A stretch of 64,000 nt of DNA from positions 1 through 64,000 of the IMG/VR virus record IMGVR_UViG_3300009610_000008. One strand, written 5' to 3'. Positions 6,339-62,927 of this stretch are shown here, in pieces. The DNA comes from a virus. Both the position numbers and the translations under genes were made by a program. How positions within the stretch are numbered: position 1 is the stretch's first letter; every line of letters starts with the position of its first letter. The notes beneath the pieces are model-generated. The model was not told where the DNA came from. It did no database searches and saw only the letters and a program-made list of their open reading frames with translations.

Positions 6339-6367
6339 TTGACACGCCGCGTCAATCGTTGTATATT
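6339..6367 (+). promoter_or_regulatory. Sigma70-type promoter overlapped by 17-bp operator
   Basis: TTGACA (6339-6344), a 17-bp spacer and TATATT (6362-6367) form a near-consensus promoter. The -35 and half of the spacer are the dyad TTGACACGCCGCGTCAA (6339-6355), which recurs with one change at the late promoter (57989-58005). The predicted start of transcription, 7 bases past the -10, is the GTG of the repressor gene. Confidence 0.75.
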
Positions 6368-6373
6368 CAAATA

Positions 6374-6598
6374 GTGGCGCACGACTTCGCAACCCTCGCT
6401 CAACATATAGGAATATCCACTCGCCACCTATACCGCATACTCAATGAGGGTAGTAGACCTAGTGTCGCAGTGCTAGGCAGGTTGGCGGCAGCCATGGATG
6501 TAACCATGGATGAACTATTGAACACTATAGACGGCGCGGCAGATGTACAGTTAAGGAAACGTGCTGGCCGTGGCAAGCGACGTAGAGTTAGTAACTAA
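6374..6598 (+). CDS. XRE-family repressor, probably from a leaderless mRNA
   Basis: The 74-residue protein is a Cro/CI-type helix-turn-helix (FATLAQHIGISTRHLYRILNE, then SVAVLGRLAAAMDVTMDELL) with a basic tail. A TTG at 6359 is in frame but lies within the promoter's -10 region, so the true start is GTG 6374, which coincides with the expected transcription start. That implies a leaderless mRNA, as for lambda CI from PRM. It is a good candidate for the protein that binds the dyad over its own -35 and over the late promoter, or the dispersed palindrome. It ends Val-Ser-Asn-stop, encoded by a palindrome copy. Confidence 0.8.
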   Translation: MAHDFATLAQHIGISTRHLYRILNEGSRPSVAVLGRLAAAMDVTMDELLNTIDGAADVQLRKRAGRGKRRRVSN

Positions 6599-6624: not shown

Positions 6625-7857
6625 ATGGCAACCGAACAAGTAGCAGTAACCAAGACACCCAAGGCCCCGCCCGTGGCACCATCCAAGGGCAGCAAGGGTA
6701 CCACGGTGGACCTCACCGCCACACCCCTGGTCATCACCTCAGCCCAACAGTTGGACGTCAAATCCATTGTCCTGGTTGACAACCCCGGCCGAATGGATGG
6801 CGATAACAAGTTGGAGACCCTACGCCATGCCATTGAGCAGGCTGGCCAAGTCCTCAACCCCATCACTATTAGACCTACCACCGAAGATGATGGCGACCTC
6901 CACGCTGATGGCAAGTATGCAGTGGTAGATGGCAGACGACGCTTTCGATGCGCCAAGTCCATTGGATTCAAAACTGTACCCGTTGTCTTGTGGAACCCCG
7001 GCAAGGGCAAGGAGCGTATCACCAGTGTGCAGGGTGCGATACTTGCCAACCTCGCCAACCGCTCTCTCACTGCCCCTGAAATGTTAAATGCATTCCTGGC
7101 CCTGGCTGACGACATGGACTGGGATGTCAAGGTCCCCAAGCTGGGCGAGAAGGGCATTGGGACATGTGGCAAGGACGTCGAGAAGTTGGCCCGTTACACT
7201 GAGACATCCAAGGCCACCATCTACAGGACATTACGTCTCGGTCTACTGGACAAGGACATCCTCAAGAAGGTCCACAACAAAGAAGTTGGTGCCGACGCCG
7301 CCCGTGACATGGGTGGGCTGGTGCAAAATGGGTACCTCACCGAGGAGCAGGCAACGCTTGTCTTCGAGGAAGCCCTGGACATGAATGCCAAGAAGGCGAA
7401 GATCGACAATCGCCGTGACCCCAACGCCCCAGACACCCGTACCCCCGATCAAATACGGCTCGACAACCTGGAACGTAAGCGTAAGAAACTCAAGCGCGCC
7501 GCCGCCGCCAAGGCCAACGGGGGTGGTGGTGAGGTTGAGGAAGAGGAGGTCATCGCAGTGTCAAAGGCTGACCTCAAAGTTGCTGCCGCCAAGCTGGAGA
7601 AGGAGGGGAAGTTGACCACCAAGGCCAGTGCTGCTGTCGCTGAGGCCAGTGCCAAGGGTGCGGGGATCTCGGCTGATGCCAAGCAGATGGCCATGCGATT
7701 GAAACATCTCGATGACGTATGTGAGGATCTCATTAACGATGAAAATCCCCACATCGCCAAGCTGGGTGCGGCTCTCACCAAGTTCATGGAAGGACAACTC
7801 CTTGCCCCCGAGTTGGTGAAACAATTCGAGAAGCACTGCCTCCCCGCCACTGAGTAG
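6625..7857 (+). CDS. ParB-like nuclease/HTH-domain protein
   Basis: This 410-residue protein has a ParB/Srx-type N-terminal fold: VDNPGRMDGDNKLETLRHAI, PITIRP, and YAVVDGRRRFRCAKSIGF (about 98-115), followed by a predicted HTH (TSKATIYRTLRLGLL, about 190-204) and a long charged, Lys- and Glu-rich C-terminal half with low-complexity runs. ParB proteins bind short palindromes and spread; phage ParB-like proteins serve in partition, transcription or as nucleases. No ParA is visible. It is one of two natural candidates to bind the dispersed 13-bp palindrome. The RBS GGAGAACAG lies just after a palindrome copy. Confidence 0.75.
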   Translation: MATEQVAVTKTPKAPPVAPSKGSKGTTVDLTATPLVITSAQQLDVKSIVLVDNPGRMDGDNKLETLRHAIEQAGQVLNPITIRPTTEDDGDLHADGKYAVVDGRRRFRCAKSIGFKTVPVVLWNPGKGKERITSVQGAILANLANRSLTAPEMLNAFLALADDMDWDVKVPKLGEKGIGTCGKDVEKLARYTETSKATIYRTLRLGLLDKDILKKVHNKEVGADAARDMGGLVQNGYLTEEQATLVFEEALDMNAKKAKIDNRRDPNAPDTRTPDQIRLDNLERKRKKLKRAAAAKANGGGGEVEEEEVIAVSKADLKVAAAKLEKEGKLTTKASAAVAEASAKGAGISADAKQMAMRLKHLDDVCEDLINDENPHIAKLGAALTKFMEGQLLAPELVKQFEKHCLPATE

Positions 7858-13259: not shown

Positions 13260-13272
13260 GTTAGTCACTAAC
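13260..13272. repeat. GTTAGTSACTAAC palindrome
   Basis: Perfect copy in the gap before the MazG-like gene leader. Confidence 0.85.
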
Positions 13273-13277
13273 CACAT

Positions 13278-13369
13278 GGTCCCGGTCCAAGCCAGGGGTA
13301 AGGGCGCAACCGTAGACGCTGGCTTCTTAACACGTCCCCCATGGGGACTACTGGGTCGCCGCCGGGACC
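13278..13369 (+). other. Three-way-junction-like leader with GTCCCC hairpin
   Basis: An outer 8-bp helix GGTCCCGG/CCGGGACC (13278-13285/13362-13369) encloses AAGCCAG/CTGGCTT (13289-13295/13319-13325) and GTCCCC/GGGGAC (13334-13339/13343-13348). The last hairpin with flanks ACAC and ACTAC repeats the element at 7903-7925. A perfect palindrome (13260) lies just upstream and the MazG-like gene's GGAGA ribosome-binding region just downstream. Confidence 0.6.
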
Positions 13370-13396
13370 ACCACCAAGGAGAATGGAGATACAAAG

Positions 13397-13777
13397 TTGG
13401 GATACCAATACACAATCAATGACCGCGTTGACCAAGTCGTCAAGGCCAATGCCAAGTGGTGGACCGACCCCACGACCGGCCAACCCAAAGACCGCAACCG
13501 CGCCGAGATGCTCATGCTCACCGTAAGTGAACTAGCCGAAGCCATGGAGGGGGATCGCAAGTCCCTCATGGACGACCACCTGCCGCACTACCCCATGTAT
13601 GTGGTGGAACTGGTCGATGCCATGATACGTATATTCGACCAGCTTGGCAATGCCACCATGCCGGACGGCAAGCCAGTGAATGTGGAGCAGATCTTCATCG
13701 ACAAGATGGAATACAATGCCCAGCGGCACGACCACACCATTGATGGTCGCCTCGCCGCTGGCGGAAAGAAGTACTAA
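13397..13777 (+). CDS. MazG-like nucleotide pyrophosphohydrolase
   Basis: This 126-residue protein shows the all-alpha NTP-PPase pattern: LTVSELAEAMEGDRK (about 42-56, ExxE metal ligands) and VELVDAMIRIFD (about 73-84, ExxD). It would hydrolyse NTPs or dNTPs to monophosphates, altering pools or alarmones. The start is TTG with GGAGATACAAAG before it; no in-frame ATG gives a complete domain. It follows the three-way-junction leader. Confidence 0.75.
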   Translation: MGYQYTINDRVDQVVKANAKWWTDPTTGQPKDRNRAEMLMLTVSELAEAMEGDRKSLMDDHLPHYPMYVVELVDAMIRIFDQLGNATMPDGKPVNVEQIFIDKMEYNAQRHDHTIDGRLAAGGKKY

Positions 13778-13785
13778 AGGACATA

Positions 13786-14004
13786 ATGGAACCCATCATG
13801 CAGTTCTTTGCCTACGCCCACCTACCGGCCCATCTCCAGGAGGTGAGTGCGCCATTCGGTGTACTCGCCGAGACCATTGTCAACATGTTGCCTCGTAACC
13901 CCGAGCGCACTGTGGCATTGCGTAAGTTGCTCGAAGCCAAGGACGCAGCAGTACGCGCGCGGCTATACACCGATGACGGCTACTCAAAAGTGCCGGGTAG
14001 TTAG
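13786..14004 (+). CDS. Acb2/Tad1-like hairpin-domain protein, candidate anti-CBASS
   Basis: This 72-residue protein matches the two-helix pattern of Acb2-like phage proteins: FAYAHLPAHLQEVSAPF (about 8-24), then a helix AETIVNMLP and the characteristic NPERTVALRKLLEAKDAAVRA (about 37-57). Acb2 is a sponge that binds cyclic nucleotides and blocks CBASS; related domains act against Thoeris signals. Assignment is by remembered pattern, without alignment. The neighbours are MazG-like (9 bases upstream) and exonuclease genes, and a perfect palindrome overlaps the region just before the stop. Confidence 0.6.
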   Translation: MEPIMQFFAYAHLPAHLQEVSAPFGVLAETIVNMLPRNPERTVALRKLLEAKDAAVRARLYTDDGYSKVPGS

Positions 14005-14012
14005 TCACTAAC
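14000..14012. repeat. GTTAGTSACTAAC palindrome
   Basis: Perfect copy over the stop of the Acb2-like gene. Confidence 0.85.
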
Positions 14013-24269: not shown

Positions 24270-24282
24270 GTTAGTGACTAAC
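24270..24282. repeat. GTTAGTSACTAAC palindrome
   Basis: Perfect copy after the polymerase gene, at the convergent terminators. Confidence 0.85.
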
Positions 24283-24316
24283 TGGGGGTACGGGGGCAAG
24301 CCCCCGAGTGACTAAC
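24270..24316 (+). terminator. GC hairpin at the end of the plus-strand operon
   Basis: CGGGGGC (24291-24297)/GCCCCCG (24300-24306) forms a tight GC hairpin flanked by a perfect palindrome (24270-24282) and a half palindrome (24304-24316). There is no U-tract directly after it, so it may work with the larger hairpin that follows. Confidence 0.5.
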
Positions 24317-24321
24317 TAAAT

Positions 24322-24390
24322 AAAAAATGGGTGGGCAACCCAGGGAAGATATGAGGGAAACCTGGATCGCCCACCCGGTCGTTGTTGTTT
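24322..24390. terminator. Bidirectional intrinsic terminator between convergent operons
   Basis: GGGTGGGC (24329-24336) pairs with GCCCACCC (24369-24376), with CCAGG/CCTGG inside. On the minus strand the stem is followed by CCATTTTTTATTTAG, a classical intrinsic terminator for the PEP-CTERM gene. On the plus strand GTTGTTGTTT follows at 24380-24389, which could end transcription from the left block. Confidence 0.75.
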
Positions 24391-24424
24391 AGAAATCTCC
24401 TGGAGGGGAGATGGTTGGACTATA

Positions 24425-25123
24425 CTACACTACTCGACGGCGTTTTGCAAGGTAAATTCCAACCAGCCCAACCCCCATGAGTGCATACGTCCCCGGCTCG
24501 GGCACCTCCGGTTCACAGTTCTCGGTGCAGAACGGGTCAATCCCCGGCCCCACGTAGAACTGGTCAATGAGTGAGATACTCGCATACCCCAGCCCATCGG
24601 TGTCACTGCCCACCAGGAAGATATCCTTGGTGATCTTGAGGAAATGGTAGGCGTTGTCGAGGAGGATCGCATCGGCGAGGGGTCCGCTGGGTGCATCGAC
24701 CTGCCCTTGCCCCGCAACGTGGAGAAACGGCGTAATGGCAATGACGGTCTCGACGACCTGGGCAAACGACGAGTCACCGACGACTGCCCCATTAAACAAC
24801 AACCCCACTGCCCCAATCGCCGGCACCGACAGCAGGTCATAGCCTACCAGGAAGTCGGCAGTGGCAAACCCACCACCCGGATTAAGTGCGGTGAACCCAC
24901 CGGCAAAGTGGAGTTGATTGCCCACCAGCGTGACATCAATGCCACTCGCATCAAGTGGCGCACACACGCCGGTCCCGCCGCAGGTGCGGATGAACGTGAA
25001 GTTATCGACGGTGATGTTGGCATTCGACAAGCTACCCCCGGCCACCAGGGTGGACAATAGCGTCGCCCCCAGGTTGAGACTGGACAAGGCCAGTATCGCG
25101 GACACAAGCACAAAGCGTTTCAT
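24425..25123 (-). CDS. Secreted PEP-CTERM surface protein
   Basis: The protein has 232 residues: signal peptide MKRFVLVSAILALSSLNLGA, a beta-rich mature domain with one Cys pair (CGGTGVC) and a second Cys pair near 200, then the sorting tail VPEPGTYALMGVGLVGIYLA followed by KRRR. That tripartite tail (PEP, membrane span, basic end) is the substrate signal of exosortase in Gram-negative bacteria. An upstream in-frame extension lacks a signal and is ignored. It lies last in the minus-strand direction, with its own terminator and a 134-base gap before it, which is typical of a lysogenic-conversion (moron) gene that would alter the host surface. Confidence 0.8.
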   Translation of the reverse strand: MKRFVLVSAILALSSLNLGATLLSTLVAGGSLSNANITVDNFTFIRTCGGTGVCAPLDASGIDVTLVGNQLHFAGGFTALNPGGGFATADFLVGYDLLSVPAIGAVGLLFNGAVVGDSSFAQVVETVIAITPFLHVAGQGQVDAPSGPLADAILLDNAYHFLKITKDIFLVGSDTDGLGYASISLIDQFYVGPGIDPFCTENCEPEVPEPGTYALMGVGLVGIYLAKRRRVV

Positions 25124-25257
25124 ACAGTAACTACATTTCCCTTCTAGATTGCCGCCGGTCCTGGAAACCGAACGTTCATGGGCCTCCAGGCAGACAGCTG
25201 ATATAGTGTACCACAACGTATCAAAATGGTGAGAGTGAGTCACTAACTGGGGTCCAC

Positions 25258-28200
25258 CTACTGCAACTTCCCCGCCCCGGTAATGGTTGCCCCACCGGTA
25301 ATAGCCGTCCCTGTACCAACCGGTGCCGCTGACACGACTATTGACAGTGCCGCCGTATCGGCTGGTGCGGCAATACTATCAGTGCAACTCACGGTGAAGT
25401 TGGACGTCCCCGCCGTGGTAGGTGTGCCGCTAATGGTTGCCACACTAATGGTCAACCCGTTAGGTAAACTACCCACGGGGATGGAACAGTTGTATGGGGG
25501 ATTCCCCCCGGTGATGGCCAGTGTCTGCGAATACCCGCTCCCCACTGTGCCGTCAGGTAGGCTGGTGGTGGTAATATCAATCGCCGCCGCCACTGTCCCC
25601 GCAGTAATCGACCCAGCCGGTACCCCAGGGCAAAACATGGTCCTGTCCGTCCCCAGTGTCATGGTCTCGCAGCCGGTTACCACCACCCCGTTCCTATACA
25701 TGGCATAGGAACCCGCCGCCGCACCGCTCACCAGTATGTCGTTGGTGGCGGTAGTGGTAAACGCAGGCACTGTCGTGGGCGAGGCGTCCGCCCTGGCTAC
25801 CAGGAACGCCTGCCCATGACATTCCTTGCCCATCCAGCCGGTAGGGTTCAACGCATTGCACGATATGGTTGTCGTCCCCGTGCCATTGAGTAGTCGATGC
25901 GCGGCCACCACCTCCATGATGTTGACATTCCCATTTGGCCCGTAGGTGAAGCGGGAGGTATAGCCGAATCCACCAGGATAACTGCCGCTGGCATTGTCCA
26001 CCCGCAGTGTCCCGGCCGATGGAAAGCTGTAGTCCGAGATGATCGTATTCACCGGACTCTGCGACAGGATCTGCCCACTGGGGCAATCAAGCGAGACTAG
26101 TCCGCCAATGCATGACGTATTCCCTTCCGTATACGAGGGGGTGGTACCGGCAGTCTGGCCATTTTGTGTGTAATGGGTATACCCCACCATGGGGATTGAG
26201 GTGGACGCCGCCGCATCCGCGATGACAAACACCATCCCCGGTCCACCGGCCTTGCCCATGTGCGCCACCCATTGGTACTCCCGTGTCAATGTCGCCGCAG
26301 TGGTGGACCCGCGCATATTGGCCCTCCATGTCACATACCGGTTACTGGCATCCACCTTGTACCTGTCCATGTACGCCCCTGTCTCGCCCACATCCCCCAG
26401 GAACTGCTTGACGGCCCCAATATTGAGCGTAGACATACGTCCATTGGGAAACTGCCCATTGGTGCCATCATCACAATCCGGGCTATCATCGCCGACTAAG
26501 CAGTTGCCTATGTTCCGCACCGCCCCACCCTGGATGTGGAGGTCACCATGTTGGGCGCTGTCGTGGTCGACAAAAAACACTGCCGAGATCATGCTGATTA
26601 GCCAATCCGTATTCGCAGCGGCAATGGAGAACCCAGTGCGTGACGCGGCCCACGCCAACGCTGGAGTAGACACAGTTGGTGGACAGTACTTCATCCCCAC
26701 TGCCGAGCAACCGGCGAACCCCTCGTTGGTAAATACCCGCCCAGTCAACGGTGGGTCCTCATACGCGGGGGCGTTGGGGTTCCAACCCATGAATCCCATC
26801 CACGGATACCTACCGGAACTATACCCAAAGTAGAGGGCGTTCAAGCCCTGCGACTGTCTAAATAACCATGCTCTCCACCACTTGTCCTGCGGGGTACCCT
26901 CGATTAACCGGGGGATGATGTATATCTCGGGATTATGCACGGCTCTCATATCATCTGGTGCCTGCCCATAGAGGAGCCAATACCTGCCATAATTTTGGGC
27001 CGCACCGCCATTGCCTGTCTCATTCGGCGATGCGCCATAGACAGCCGCTTCCGCCAGGGAGTTGACAAAAGGAGTCCACCCAATATCCGGGTAGTCAGTG
27101 TAGTTCTTGAGAATGAATATCGGCTCCAGCAACATGGGGTACGACCTACCCCTGCCGTAGAGAGAACCGTGAGTGAGACCGCTGCGGGACATGAAGAACG
27201 CCATGGCATTGTCGTAGTACGCCGCCCATGATCTCTGTGCAAAATCCCTGGCGGTGGGCGAGATGTCCACGAACGTCATGCTTACCACGAACGTTCCCCA
27301 TAGCTGGGTGAGGATCAGGTTATTGGTCTGGCCCCAAAGGGACTGGGCATTGGCAAAGTTACTATACTTCCCGCCCGGTGTGCCATAGCTTAGGGTGGTG
27401 TTATTGTGGTGCTGCTGCCACTCGATGATCCCGCAGTTAAGGGCGGTCATGCGGGGAACCCAACTCCAACTGGACGTGGTAGTGGACTTGGGTTGCGTGG
27501 ACGTTAATGTCGGGGTGTTGGTGCCCCCGCCTGTCGATATCCTGCTCATGTCGCCCTCGTCGGTGGAGGTTGACCAGAAGATGAGGTCGCCATTGGACAG
27601 GGCAGACAGGTTGGAGCCATTGCCGGTCAGCGAGGTGCCAGCCGCCGTGATCGACCCGCTACCCACTGTCTTGGTTGGGTACACACAACCCTCGGCTTCC
27701 TGGGCGAATACTTTACGCTCCCATAATGTGAACTCGGCGGAGGTGCATTGCCCCGCAATGTTGACAAATGTCCCCAGTGGCGCACATAGTATCCGTACCG
27801 CTTTGGCCGCTTGATCCATGGAGGTGCGGCTATAGTCCAGGGACGAGCGGTTGTTGGGTTCGCACAGGTTCTGCGTCTTGTCACAGAACGTATTGCCAAA
27901 CACCACGTCCTCGACTTGTAACAGGGCAATGCGTGCCTTGGTCAATGCCGTGGCATCACGGGTAATGAACCACTTGATGGCCGCGCCCAACTGGTTGGCC
28001 ATATAGGTACTGCCATCGGGTGCGGTGTCGGCATTGTAGGTAGCCGGGGTCCAGCTAGTGACTTGGTCTGACATTTGCGTCCAGAGTGTGTTATTTGTCT
28101 GGGCGTACTTGGAGAGGGTTAATCCAGTCTCGGTGTAGACCCCGTTGCCCACGCTGGCGGTATTGATGGTGAAGGTGTTGGCAGTATCATTCTTGGACTG

Positions 28201-28800
28201 GACGATATATGTCCCATTGAGATCCACATCACCAGTGGCTAACCATATGCCAATCCTGGATGTAGTAGGCGTCAATTCATCAGTGTACCCATCGGCGACA
28301 GTGATGGTTGCGACGTTGCTAGTCACCGAGATGGAGACGAGACAGGGGTCGGCGGTATCAATGGCACAGCGTAAACGTCTGGTCATCGTCCCACCGGGGC
28401 CATCGAGCAATCCAAACTTAGTCACTAACGTCGCCCTGGCCTTGCCGTTGACATAGTTACGATTGGGTTCTGTCCAACTGCCGCAACCAGTACCCGCCAC
28501 GTTGACATCACCAGTGGTCTTGAGATCCAGGGTGGTGGTGGTGACTGCGGCCACCTTGAATAGACCAGTAAGGACAGTGCAATTCTTGTCCTCATTACTA
28601 GTCACCCAATAATCATTCACTGCCAAGCCGGTCCAGGCGGCATTAGTAGTGAGGCGTATGGGTGTAGTGGTAGATACTCCAGTGACTCTCACTGCCCCCG
28701 CCGGTGTGCCGTATCGCAGGTAGATGGTCACCGGGTCGGCCACCAGGGGCTTGGCCATGAGGAGTAGGCACAGGTTAGTGACTAACTTGATATTGGTCAT
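25258..28800 (-). CDS. Large exported adhesin/fibre-like protein with Ig-like domain
   Basis: This 1,180-residue protein begins with a signal peptide (MTNIKLVTNLCLLLMAKPLV). The mature part has beta-rich modules, a helical central region, and at about 1,070-1,160 an He_PIG-type Ig domain (SLPDGTVGSGYSQTLAITGG ... GLTISVATISGTPTTAGTSN), a module frequent in acidobacterial surface proteins. It may be a tail fibre or spike, or a host-surface protein encoded by the phage. The start overlaps the preceding stop (TAATG). Four of the first ten residues (Leu-Val-Thr-Asn) come from a perfect palindrome. Confidence 0.65.
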   Translation of the reverse strand: MTNIKLVTNLCLLLMAKPLVADPVTIYLRYGTPAGAVRVTGVSTTTPIRLTTNAAWTGLAVNDYWVTSNEDKNCTVLTGLFKVAAVTTTTLDLKTTGDVNVAGTGCGSWTEPNRNYVNGKARATLVTKFGLLDGPGGTMTRRLRCAIDTADPCLVSISVTSNVATITVADGYTDELTPTTSRIGIWLATGDVDLNGTYIVQSKNDTANTFTINTASVGNGVYTETGLTLSKYAQTNNTLWTQMSDQVTSWTPATYNADTAPDGSTYMANQLGAAIKWFITRDATALTKARIALLQVEDVVFGNTFCDKTQNLCEPNNRSSLDYSRTSMDQAAKAVRILCAPLGTFVNIAGQCTSAEFTLWERKVFAQEAEGCVYPTKTVGSGSITAAGTSLTGNGSNLSALSNGDLIFWSTSTDEGDMSRISTGGGTNTPTLTSTQPKSTTTSSWSWVPRMTALNCGIIEWQQHHNNTTLSYGTPGGKYSNFANAQSLWGQTNNLILTQLWGTFVVSMTFVDISPTARDFAQRSWAAYYDNAMAFFMSRSGLTHGSLYGRGRSYPMLLEPIFILKNYTDYPDIGWTPFVNSLAEAAVYGASPNETGNGGAAQNYGRYWLLYGQAPDDMRAVHNPEIYIIPRLIEGTPQDKWWRAWLFRQSQGLNALYFGYSSGRYPWMGFMGWNPNAPAYEDPPLTGRVFTNEGFAGCSAVGMKYCPPTVSTPALAWAASRTGFSIAAANTDWLISMISAVFFVDHDSAQHGDLHIQGGAVRNIGNCLVGDDSPDCDDGTNGQFPNGRMSTLNIGAVKQFLGDVGETGAYMDRYKVDASNRYVTWRANMRGSTTAATLTREYQWVAHMGKAGGPGMVFVIADAAASTSIPMVGYTHYTQNGQTAGTTPSYTEGNTSCIGGLVSLDCPSGQILSQSPVNTIISDYSFPSAGTLRVDNASGSYPGGFGYTSRFTYGPNGNVNIMEVVAAHRLLNGTGTTTISCNALNPTGWMGKECHGQAFLVARADASPTTVPAFTTTATNDILVSGAAAGSYAMYRNGVVVTGCETMTLGTDRTMFCPGVPAGSITAGTVAAAIDITTTSLPDGTVGSGYSQTLAITGGNPPYNCSIPVGSLPNGLTISVATISGTPTTAGTSNFTVSCTDSIAAPADTAALSIVVSAAPVGTGTAITGGATITGAGKLQ
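28774..28786. repeat. GTTAGTSACTAAC palindrome
   Basis: Perfect copy in the signal peptide region of the 25258 gene, read as Leu-Val-Thr-Asn. Confidence 0.85.
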
Positions 28801-30326
28801 TATCGTGCCGCTAGGATGGCTGGCATGAACGTTCCATTGGTGGTCAATGCTGTCGCCGTGCCACAACTGGCCGGTAGCAATAGTGATGCCCCACTGCCTG
28901 TCGATGGATTGGAACATGACACCATGCGCGGCACGCTGGCCACAAACCCCTGGATAATAAACGGCGACAACGACAACCCGGTCTCGCCACTGCCATAATA
29001 CTGTGATAGTACACCCTCGCTGGAGATGGCGATCCAATGGACCCCGGCGGCAATGGTCGACCCACCCCCCACGGCCCATGTACCGGTCTTTTGAGTAATA
29101 CCACTGGAGTCGCCATTGACAAACCTTGCTTCCAGTGCCCCCGGCGTATCACTGCTGTCGGCGTATATGCCAACCGTAGTGCCGTCAGTGGATGCACCCC
29201 CTGTGTTCTGGTAGTAGACCCACTTGTTGAGTACCAGTGGTCCGGGTAAGTACGCCTGCATCATCACCACCCCCTTGTTCTGGGCGGCGGAGACCAGGAT
29301 GGCTCGATTACTGATCTGCGGCTGGGTGCAATTGGTAAACAGGAAACAGGACGACATATTGGGCGTGCTACCCGCACTGGGAGTGAATGTCTCCATCACC
29401 CTACAGGTCTTGGTGGCAATGGTCACGGTGGTGGCCGACCCGCGCCATGATTCCCCATTACCCAGTGCGCCGGTGAACACGACACATCCATCGACAGTTT
29501 GATTAGCCGCCCCATAGACGCGGAAGTCGTTGGTGCCGTTGGCAGTAAGTTCCGGGAGTACCAGCCCACTCTGTGCCGTGCCGTCCCCAGCCGTGAATCC
29601 ACCAGTGCAGGTAATGTTATTGGACGCATACGAGCACCCCGTCCCCTGCGTCACTGTCCCCGCCGACGAGACAATCACCACCCTGGTAGCCGTGGTGAGG
29701 TTGGACCCGCCCAGCACATCCCCACTACCACCCCCTGGTGCCACACTGGTTCCATCTACCCGCACAAGGTTGGTACCCGCCCCCGTAACGACACTCGATA
29801 TCCCGGCGGTCTGCTTGATTACCCCGGTGAGGGTACTACGGGTCAACACCGTCCCTGCCGCATTGATGTTGGTATCCTCGCCACCAGTGCCAGCCGAGGG
29901 GCCAGTGACATTGCCCCCACCACCCCCCGCCGCACTTGTACCGTCGACCCGTACAAAGTCAGTAGCAGTACCAGTCACCACACTTGGCACGCCGCCAGCG
30001 GTCTTGATCACCCCGGTCAATGCGGATCGTGTCAGTGCCGTACCCGCCGCATCCACGGTGGTGATCGCCCCAGCGGTACCGGGAGCCGGACCAACCACAT
30101 TACCTGTCCCAGCCCCACCAGCACCGCTAAGTACAGTCCAGGTATTATTCGCGGTACATGAGGCGAGACGTAATGCATCGGCGACACCAACAGTAGTGTT
30201 TAGCCAAAAGTCACGCCCAGCCACACAGTTAACGGGTGCAGTAGGTCCAGTATAGTACCGGGCAGTGCCACTTGTCTGGGCCAGGATGGGCAGTGCCACC
30301 AGGATGGATAGAATGAGATGTCGCAT
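28800..30326 (-). CDS. Exported fibre-like protein with tandem ~53-residue repeats
   Basis: This 508-residue protein starts with the signal peptide MRHLILSILVALPILAQ behind AAAGGAAAAC. Residues about 70-180 contain two to three repeats of the form GxxGGxxTxxxAAGTxLTRSxLTGVIK ... VRVDGTS, with Gly-rich joints, typical of a fibrous shaft. The C-terminal part is beta-rich and could be a receptor-binding tip. It overlaps the next gene in TAATG fashion. Phage fibres normally lack Sec signals, so its role as virion part or exported protein is open. Confidence 0.6.
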   Translation of the reverse strand: MRHLILSILVALPILAQTSGTARYYTGPTAPVNCVAGRDFWLNTTVGVADALRLASCTANNTWTVLSGAGGAGTGNVVGPAPGTAGAITTVDAAGTALTRSALTGVIKTAGGVPSVVTGTATDFVRVDGTSAAGGGGGNVTGPSAGTGGEDTNINAAGTVLTRSTLTGVIKQTAGISSVVTGAGTNLVRVDGTSVAPGGGSGDVLGGSNLTTATRVVIVSSAGTVTQGTGCSYASNNITCTGGFTAGDGTAQSGLVLPELTANGTNDFRVYGAANQTVDGCVVFTGALGNGESWRGSATTVTIATKTCRVMETFTPSAGSTPNMSSCFLFTNCTQPQISNRAILVSAAQNKGVVMMQAYLPGPLVLNKWVYYQNTGGASTDGTTVGIYADSSDTPGALEARFVNGDSSGITQKTGTWAVGGGSTIAAGVHWIAISSEGVLSQYYGSGETGLSLSPFIIQGFVASVPRMVSCSNPSTGSGASLLLPASCGTATALTTNGTFMPAILAAR

Positions 30327-37438: not shown

Positions 37439-37451
37439 GTTAGTGACTAAC
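37439..37451. repeat. GTTAGTSACTAAC palindrome
   Basis: Perfect copy in the short gap between two virion genes. Confidence 0.85.
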
Positions 37452-50582: not shown

Positions 50583-50595
50583 GTTAGTGACTAAC
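50583..50595. repeat. GTTAGTSACTAAC palindrome
   Basis: Perfect copy over the terminase stop, before the portal gene. Confidence 0.85.
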
Positions 50596-62666: not shown

Positions 62667-62927
62667 ATGAAACTACTCGTGTCCCTTATCCTGGCTGCTG
62701 GCCTGTGCCTTGCCGAGCCTGTCTACTTCACCAAATCTGGCAAGAAGTTCCACAAGGCCACCAAGTGTGGGCAGATGACGCCCGACAAGGCCATGACGGC
62801 TGATCGCACAGAGGCTACGTCACATGGCCTGTCCCAGTGTGGGCGCTGCTACCGTGTCACGACAGGTAAGTCCAGTGGCAGCGACAAATCGTGGGCCAAG
62901 CCAGTAACGCCCACACCCGCCAAGTAG
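62667..62927 (+). CDS. Secreted small protein with three-Cys metal-site motif
   Basis: The signal peptide MKLLVSLILAAGLCLAE is followed by YFTKSGKKFHKATKCGQM and SHGLSQCGRCY, which together give the HxxxxC...CxxC pattern seen in small exported Zn-binding modules (the fold found after thermonuclease or ComEA domains). The tail is Pro/Lys-rich. An exported protein among early genes may alter the host envelope, for example to exclude superinfection. RBS GGAGAAC. Confidence 0.65.
   Translation: MKLLVSLILAAGLCLAEPVYFTKSGKKFHKATKCGQMTPDKAMTADRTEATSHGLSQCGRCYRVTTGKSSGSDKSWAKPVTPTPAK

What the first reader, a model, noticed from the sequence alone, without database searches (positions are those of the whole stretch)
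24425..25123. Phage-encoded PEP-CTERM protein
A complete secreted protein with the exosortase sorting tail (VPEPGTYALMGVGLVGIYLA then KRRR) lies at the end of the virion operon, isolated by its own terminator. PEP-CTERM proteins are made by bacteria with exosortase and extracellular polysaccharide systems. On a phage this suggests lysogenic conversion of the cell surface, perhaps superinfection exclusion or biofilm change, and it narrows the host range.
Basis: partly seen in the sequence, partly recalled or inferred. Interest (0 to 1): 0.78.

Follow-up and report, generated by a model that had tools for sequence, protein, structure and literature searches.

The report
Phage moron encoding exosortase-sorted surface protein
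A complete soil-type phage genome carries a self-contained gene cassette for a secreted protein bearing the bacterial PEP-CTERM address tag, which suggests that the phage uses its host's own sorting machinery (the host is unknown) to place a viral protein on or outside the cell; similar genes turn out to sit on many other uncultured phages.

Summary
The gene is on the MINUS strand (24425-25123, 232 aa): signal peptide, beta-rich core, PEP-CTERM tail over the Pfam and TIGRFAM cut-offs. It is phage DNA, not a chimera: the record has a 108-bp terminal repeat, so it is probably complete, and three related phages carry the gene at the same place. Fourteen IMG/VR contigs from three unrelated phage lineages encode it (67-77% identity); no bacterial genome, plasmid or isolate phage gave a homologue. 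It is a moron cassette: own promoter-like site, leader, terminator, flanked by two copies of a 13-bp palindrome. A related phage without the gene has one copy at the empty junction. Purifying selection (dN/dS about 0.05-0.24) indicates function. Most likely it is exported, sorted by the host exosortase, and changes the cell surface or exopolysaccharide, perhaps blocking superinfection (inferred). Lysogeny is uncertain: no integrase here, but about 50 stoperator-like sites and a Cro/CI-type protein. Host and exosortase were not testable. PEP-CTERM tails also occur in about 26 other protein groups on IMG/VR contigs, some beside terminase, portal or capsid genes. I found no paper that describes this.

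The parts
24425..25123 (-). PEP-CTERM protein gene, 232 aa, stop codon included
   Evidence: homologues in 14 viral contigs
25064..25123 (-). Signal peptide, residues 1-20 (MKRFVLVSAILALSSLNLGA), predicted by eye
   Evidence: sequence; the pattern is kept in 9 distinct homologues; hydrophobic segment at residues 3-23
24506..25063 (-). Mature beta-rich core, residues 21-206, with invariant C48, C54 and C199
   Evidence: model pTM 0.61, mean pLDDT 58
24434..24505 (-). PEP-CTERM sorting tail, residues 207-230: VPEP, hydrophobic helix, KRRR
   Evidence: PF07589 at G000:24437-24505
25205..25213 (-). Extended -10-like box TGGTACACT (TGGTATACT/TGGTATAGT/TGGTATGCT in relatives)
   Evidence: the only such box beside any of the 50 sites of the window genome; a consensus match only
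25160..25190 (-). Leader hairpin CCTGGA...TGAACGTTC...TCCAGG upstream of the ribosome-binding site
   Evidence: other lineages have a different leader hairpin at the same place
25136..25145 (-). Shine-Dalgarno-like AGAAGGGAAA
   Evidence: sequence
24395..24412 (-). 3'UTR hairpin, stem ATCTC/GAGAT, loop holding CTCCAG
   Evidence: covariation: 11 cells changed on both sides, 0/500 shuffles reach it; found only behind this gene in the loci scanned
24315..24376 (-). Intrinsic terminator, 16-bp stem (24329-24376) then a U-run
   Evidence: z -5.55
24270..24282 (.). 13-bp palindrome GTTAGTGACTAAC, 3' boundary of the cassette
25235..25247 (.). 13-bp palindrome (GTTAGTGACTCAC on the minus strand, one mismatch), 5' boundary of the cassette

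Best explanation
The gene is a phage moron: an accessory, independently transcribed cassette that encodes a substrate for the host's exosortase. The phage protein is made in the infected or lysogenic cell, exported through Sec by its signal peptide, held in the inner membrane by the C-terminal helix, cut at the PEP motif by the host exosortase, and released to the cell surface or exopolysaccharide. There its beta-sandwich core probably binds or alters surface polysaccharide, and this most likely keeps competing phages off or changes EPS and aggregation in favour of the infected cell. SHOWN by sequence: phage location, signal peptide and tail, moron anatomy, presence/absence polymorphism, sharing by three phage lineages, purifying selection. 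INFERRED: export, exosortase cleavage, surface location, polysaccharide binding, superinfection exclusion.
For: PEP-CTERM tail over curated cut-offs here and in 10 other phage records. Record with 108-bp terminal repeat; the same slot between DNA polymerase and the virion genes in relatives L006, L008 and L010. Empty site in L035: polymerase stop, one GTTAGTAACTAAC, virion-gene stop; the gene is also absent from lineage-B relatives L044, L050 and L051. Own terminator and a promoter-like box unique among the sites of the genome. 67-77% identity between phages whose capsid proteins are only about 29% alike or not alignable. dN/dS 0.05-0.24 where it can be computed. No homologue found in the GTDB scan, INPHARED phages or plasmids (a tail match only). 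Core model resembles carbohydrate-binding modules and tailspike domains, weakly. PEP-CTERM proteins are tied to EPS and flocs: PMC1569441, PMC9850573.
Against: No host and no exosortase identified. No integrase in this lineage, so expression from a prophage is unproven. Core function unknown; fold matches have TM below 0.5 on a model of pLDDT 58. The promoter is only a consensus match. No expression or phenotype data. The genome scan needs exact 8-residue peptides and would miss distant cellular relatives.
Confidence: 0.6

Rival explanations
1. Lytic-phase EPS function. The protein is made during lytic infection and helps progeny escape: by occupying or loosening EPS it stops new virions from being trapped on debris or matrix. 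No lysogeny is needed.
For: Lineages A and B lack an integrase; in L006, L008 and L010 a 13-bp site lies where the -35 box should be, so a phage repressor could silence the gene in lysogens; lineage A also encodes a large protein with a likely signal peptide next to it.
Against: The independent promoter-like box and terminator are typical of genes expressed outside the lytic programme; lineage C has an integrase near the gene.
Confidence: 0.25
2. Exosortase decoy. A well expressed phage substrate competes for the host exosortase and lowers display of host PEP-CTERM proteins, weakening EPS attachment.
For: The tail is the only part recognised as a known family; one copy per phage.
Against: The core is as strongly conserved as the tail or more; a decoy would not need an invariant 180-residue core.
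Confidence: 0.08
3. Virion decoration protein that happens to carry a hydrophobic tail.
For: Lies downstream of the virion genes on the same strand; the beta-sandwich resembles tail-fibre and tailspike domains in weak fold matches.
Against: Signal peptide plus PEP motif plus basic cluster; separate transcription unit; missing from close relatives; elsewhere it sits beside an integrase or early genes.
Confidence: 0.05
4. Chimeric assembly or bacterial DNA in a viral contig.
For: PEP-CTERM genes are normally bacterial.
Against: Terminal repeats of 108, 108 and 127 bp in three collinear genomes, the same junctions in independent contigs, 13-bp phage sites on both sides, GC like each host phage, no bacterial match.
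Confidence: 0.01

Closest known systems
PEP-CTERM/exosortase (EpsH) substrates, Haft et al. 2006 (PMC1569441)
   Same: Signal peptide, C-terminal PEP motif, hydrophobic helix and basic cluster; single-gene transcription unit.
   Different: Encoded by phages; no exosortase or EPS locus on the replicon; upstream gap to the next gene here about 134 nt, not over 200; no shared sigma-54-like site among the nine copies; core unrelated to the NCBIfam PEP-CTERM families.
Flocculation proteins PepA (NF033554; Aquincola and Zoogloea, PMC9850573)
   Same: The tail matches (31.2 bits, residues 206-230).
   Different: Far below the family cut-off of 80 bits; the core does not match, so it is not a PepA.
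Phage morons / lysogenic conversion genes (general knowledge)
   Same: Accessory cassette with own promoter-like site and terminator between phage transcription units; absent from close relatives; surface-directed product.
   Different: Uses a C-terminal sorting tag that depends on a host enzyme; phage lifestyle and phenotype unknown.
TIGR03118 proteins in Yellowstone virus contigs (PMC11003980)
   Same: The only mention I found of virus-borne proteins with a putative exosortase-interaction tail.
   Different: Listed there as horizontally acquired genes, without family, cassette or mechanism; a different core family by name.
Cluster A mycobacteriophage stoperators (PMC6550527)
   Same: 13-bp sites spread over the genome, mostly not promoter-associated.
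   Different: Here palindromic and about 50 rather than 20 to 30; the binding protein is unknown; host not a mycobacterium as far as known.

Membership tests
PEP-CTERM proteins | C-terminal PEP motif, hydrophobic stretch and basic cluster over curated cut-offs | tested here: met
   PF07589 31.3 vs 20.7; TIGR02595 25.9 vs 16; 11 phage records over cut-off
PEP-CTERM proteins | N-terminal signal peptide | tested here: met
   Judged by eye and hydropathy; n-, h- and c-regions kept in all complete homologues; no dedicated predictor was available
PEP-CTERM proteins | Exosortase present in the same cell | not testable with these tools
PEP-CTERM proteins | Single-gene operon with a large upstream intergenic region | tested here: inconclusive
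   Own terminator and promoter-like box; upstream gap about 134 nt
PEP-CTERM proteins (proteobacterial) | Conserved sigma-54 site upstream | tested here: not met
   No shared GG-N10-GC site at a common position in nine leaders; expected only in Proteobacteria
Phage moron | Extra gene present or absent between otherwise collinear phage genes | tested here: met
   L035 empty site; lineage B relatives without it
Phage moron | Own promoter and terminator | tested here: inconclusive
   Terminator strong in all nine leaders and tails; promoter is a consensus match only
Phage moron | Expressed from the prophage and dispensable for growth | not testable with these tools
   No isolate, no expression data
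Phage moron | Base composition unlike the phage | tested here: not met
   Gene GC 0.591, genome 0.565; similar in relatives, consistent with long residence
Flocculation protein PepA NF033554 | Whole-protein score over 80 bits | tested here: not met
   31.2 bits, tail only

The most novel reading that the evidence does not exclude
Exosortase substrates are a general, so far undescribed class of phage cargo. Many phages of exosortase-bearing bacteria carry PEP-CTERM morons that make the host display phage-encoded polysaccharide-binding proteins as superinfection-exclusion or EPS-remodelling agents. In this family the cassette also carries a 3'UTR RNA hairpin with an anti-Shine-Dalgarno-like CUCC loop that may act as a small RNA.
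Probability: 0.3. Interest if true: 0.85.

Novelty: new variant of a known kind. Interest (0 to 1): 0.62.

Why it matters
It would be a route by which phages put their own proteins on a Gram-negative cell surface through the exosortase system, whose purpose is still poorly understood and which is tied to EPS and flocs. It gives concrete testable genes, and it suggests a way to predict exosortase-positive hosts for uncultured phages. The wider scan (79 IMG/VR stretches, about 27 protein groups from one strict motif) suggests that the phenomenon is common.

Tried and rejected
Chimera or host contamination: rejected. Phage-borne exosortase: none. Integrase in this phage: none. Cellular homologues: none in two GTDB scans. 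Isolate phages with similar tails: none convincing (the Shewanella phage hit at E=2 was not pursued beyond its annotation). Host: attempts to reach Acidobacteriota genomes failed, since a plasmid record or a virus record cannot serve as centre; terminase and capsid searches gave only remote isolates. Rfam: no match at the cassette or in the lineage B and C loci searched. Structure of the full protein: too poor (pLDDT 45); core alone better but still weak, so the carbohydrate-binding resemblance is only a lead. TGAACGTTC as a genome-wide site: not over-represented. Gene trees: the protein tree does not resolve the lineages; the DNA tree groups A well and B weakly. A single-origin versus many-transfer history was therefore not settled. 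PF07589 on a Granulicella plasmid was uninformative.

Full report
WHAT IS THERE. The ORF at 24425-25123 is on the minus strand and encodes 232 aa. It begins with a signal peptide (MKRFVLVSAILALSSLNLGA) and ends VPEPGTYALMGVGLVGIYLAKRRRVV. The tail passes the curated cut-offs of Pfam PF07589 (31.3 vs 20.7 bits) and TIGR02595 (25.9 vs 16). The core matches nothing in Pfam or PHROGs and nothing significant in the PDB by sequence.

PHAGE, NOT CHIMERA. The record is an IMG/VR virus of 64,917 bases with a 108-bp terminal direct repeat, which indicates a complete genome. It has a major head protein (weak match to phrog_1328), a weak terminase match, helicases and a family A DNA polymerase. Two other records of 65.9 and 67.1 kb also have end repeats (108 and 127 bp) and are collinear with it; their head proteins are 92% identical to that of the window.

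A PHAGE-BORNE FAMILY. Three scans of IMG/VR with different peptide patterns (the later two drawn from alignments) converge on the same 14 contigs. Nine distinct complete proteins align over their whole length with 82% mean column identity. Two scans of about 85,000 bacterial and archaeal genomes found no relative, though that search needs exact short peptides. INPHARED phages have none and plasmids only a tail match. The contigs fall into three lineages: A (window, L006-L008, L010-L011), B (L004, L005, L012-L015) and C (L002, L003, L009). A and B capsid proteins are only about 29% identical over part of their length, and the polymerase is found only in A. Only lineage C has a tyrosine integrase. 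No record has an exosortase. dN/dS is 0.045-0.24 where it can be computed; many dS values are saturated.

MORON ANATOMY. In L035, a lineage A relative (polymerase 86% identical to the window's and 94% to that of L006), the polymerase stop and the last virion gene's stop are separated by a single 13-bp GTTAGTAACTAAC. In the window, L006, L008 and L010 the same junction holds the gene with its leader and terminator between two copies of this palindrome. Lineage B relatives L044, L050 and L051 also lack the gene. In all nine distinct copies a strong terminator hairpin follows, and a leader hairpin precedes the ribosome-binding site. In the window the only one of 50 palindromes with an extended -10-like box nearby is the one upstream of this gene. 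GC of the gene resembles each phage, so residence is old.

A CONSERVED RNA ELEMENT. Just after the stop codon seven of nine copies have a hairpin with invariant CTCCAG in the loop and a changing stem. In six aligned copies 89% of cells pair, with 11 double changes; none of 500 shuffles reaches this, and slid controls are far lower. It occurs only behind this gene in the loci scanned and has no Rfam match. The CUCC loop could pair with Shine-Dalgarno sequences; that is a guess.

HOW IT PROBABLY WORKS. By established knowledge of the PEP-CTERM system (Haft et al. 2006, PMC1569441), such proteins pass Sec, are held by the tail and are processed by an exosortase in EPS-producing Gram-negative bacteria; in Aquincola a PEP-CTERM protein ties EPS to cells (PMC9850573). 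The phage protein should follow that path using the host enzyme. AlphaFold on the core gives a beta-sandwich (pTM 0.61, pLDDT 58.5) with weak Foldseek similarity, TM below 0.5, to carbohydrate-binding modules and tailspike domains. I therefore propose polysaccharide binding at the surface, with superinfection exclusion or EPS change as the benefit. Sequence shows the address tags, the cassette and the selection; every later step is inference.

LIFESTYLE. Lysogenic conversion needs a lysogen. Lineage A has no integrase, but has about 50 palindromic 13-bp sites per genome (50, 48 and 47; chance expectation about 1), mostly at gene edges, a conserved Cro/CI-type 79-aa protein and a ParB-domain protein without an identified ParA. 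This resembles stoperator control in Cluster A mycobacteriophages (20 to 30 sites; PMC6550527), some of which are extrachromosomal prophages. It makes a temperate, plasmid-like state possible, not shown. In L006, L008 and L010 the palindrome lies over the expected -35 region of the cassette, which would argue for repression in a lysogen; in the window the site is degenerate and further upstream.

WIDER OCCURRENCE. One strict DNA motif for V-P-E-P-x-T-x-A found 79 IMG/VR stretches; in 66 it is the C-terminal tail of an ORF by my rule. They form about 27 sequence groups. Neighbours include terminase, portal and head proteins in the contigs tested (L102, L112, L127, L128), and eight contigs hold two or more tail-like ORFs, one of them (L108) doubtful. 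Bacterial flanks in IMG/VR are not excluded for the rest. Searches of the held literature found no description of phage PEP-CTERM proteins beyond one passing mention.

VERDICT. Observation confirmed with the strand corrected; interpretation partly supported. This is a new variant of known kinds: a PEP-CTERM protein as a phage moron.

Noticed in passing
whole window; e.g. 24270-24282, 28774-28786, 37439-37451, 50583-50595: About 50 copies of a 13-bp palindrome GTTAGTNACTAAC, mostly at gene edges (102 both-strand matches with up to 2 mismatches vs 0.96 expected); 48 and 47 in two collinear genomes, none in lineages B and C. Likely stoperator-like regulatory sites of an unknown phage protein.
   Followed up: partly
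13260-14012 and other gene-content differences between lineage A genomes: Gene gains and losses often come with one extra 13-bp palindrome: the filled state usually has a site at both ends, the empty state one. Recombination at the sites or a need for one site per transcription unit would both explain it.
   Followed up: partly
24395-24412 minus strand: 3'UTR hairpin with covarying stem and invariant CTCCAG loop, only behind this gene, in three phage lineages; possible 3'UTR-derived small RNA.
   Followed up: partly
25258-29079 minus strand: Large ORF; an internal start MTNIKLVTNLCLLLMAKPLVA gives a likely signal peptide and an Ig-like C-terminus. A 25%-identical relative in L010 also starts like a secreted protein; absent from L006. 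Possible secreted EPS-active protein; no family match.
   Followed up: partly
6359-6598 and 6625-7857 plus strand: Cro/CI-type HTH protein followed by a ParB-domain protein, both conserved in lineage A, no integrase and no recognised ParA.
   Followed up: partly
L062, L070, L086, L093, L117, L126, L137 (and perhaps L108): IMG/VR contigs with two or three ORFs ending in PEP-CTERM-like tails.
   Followed up: no
62667-62927 plus strand: Small secreted-looking protein (MKLLVSLILAAGLCLA...) matching the C-terminal end of phrog_14556, unknown function.
   Followed up: no
L013:4075-4756: The homologue is split over two overlapping frames, a frameshift in the gene or in the assembly.
   Followed up: no
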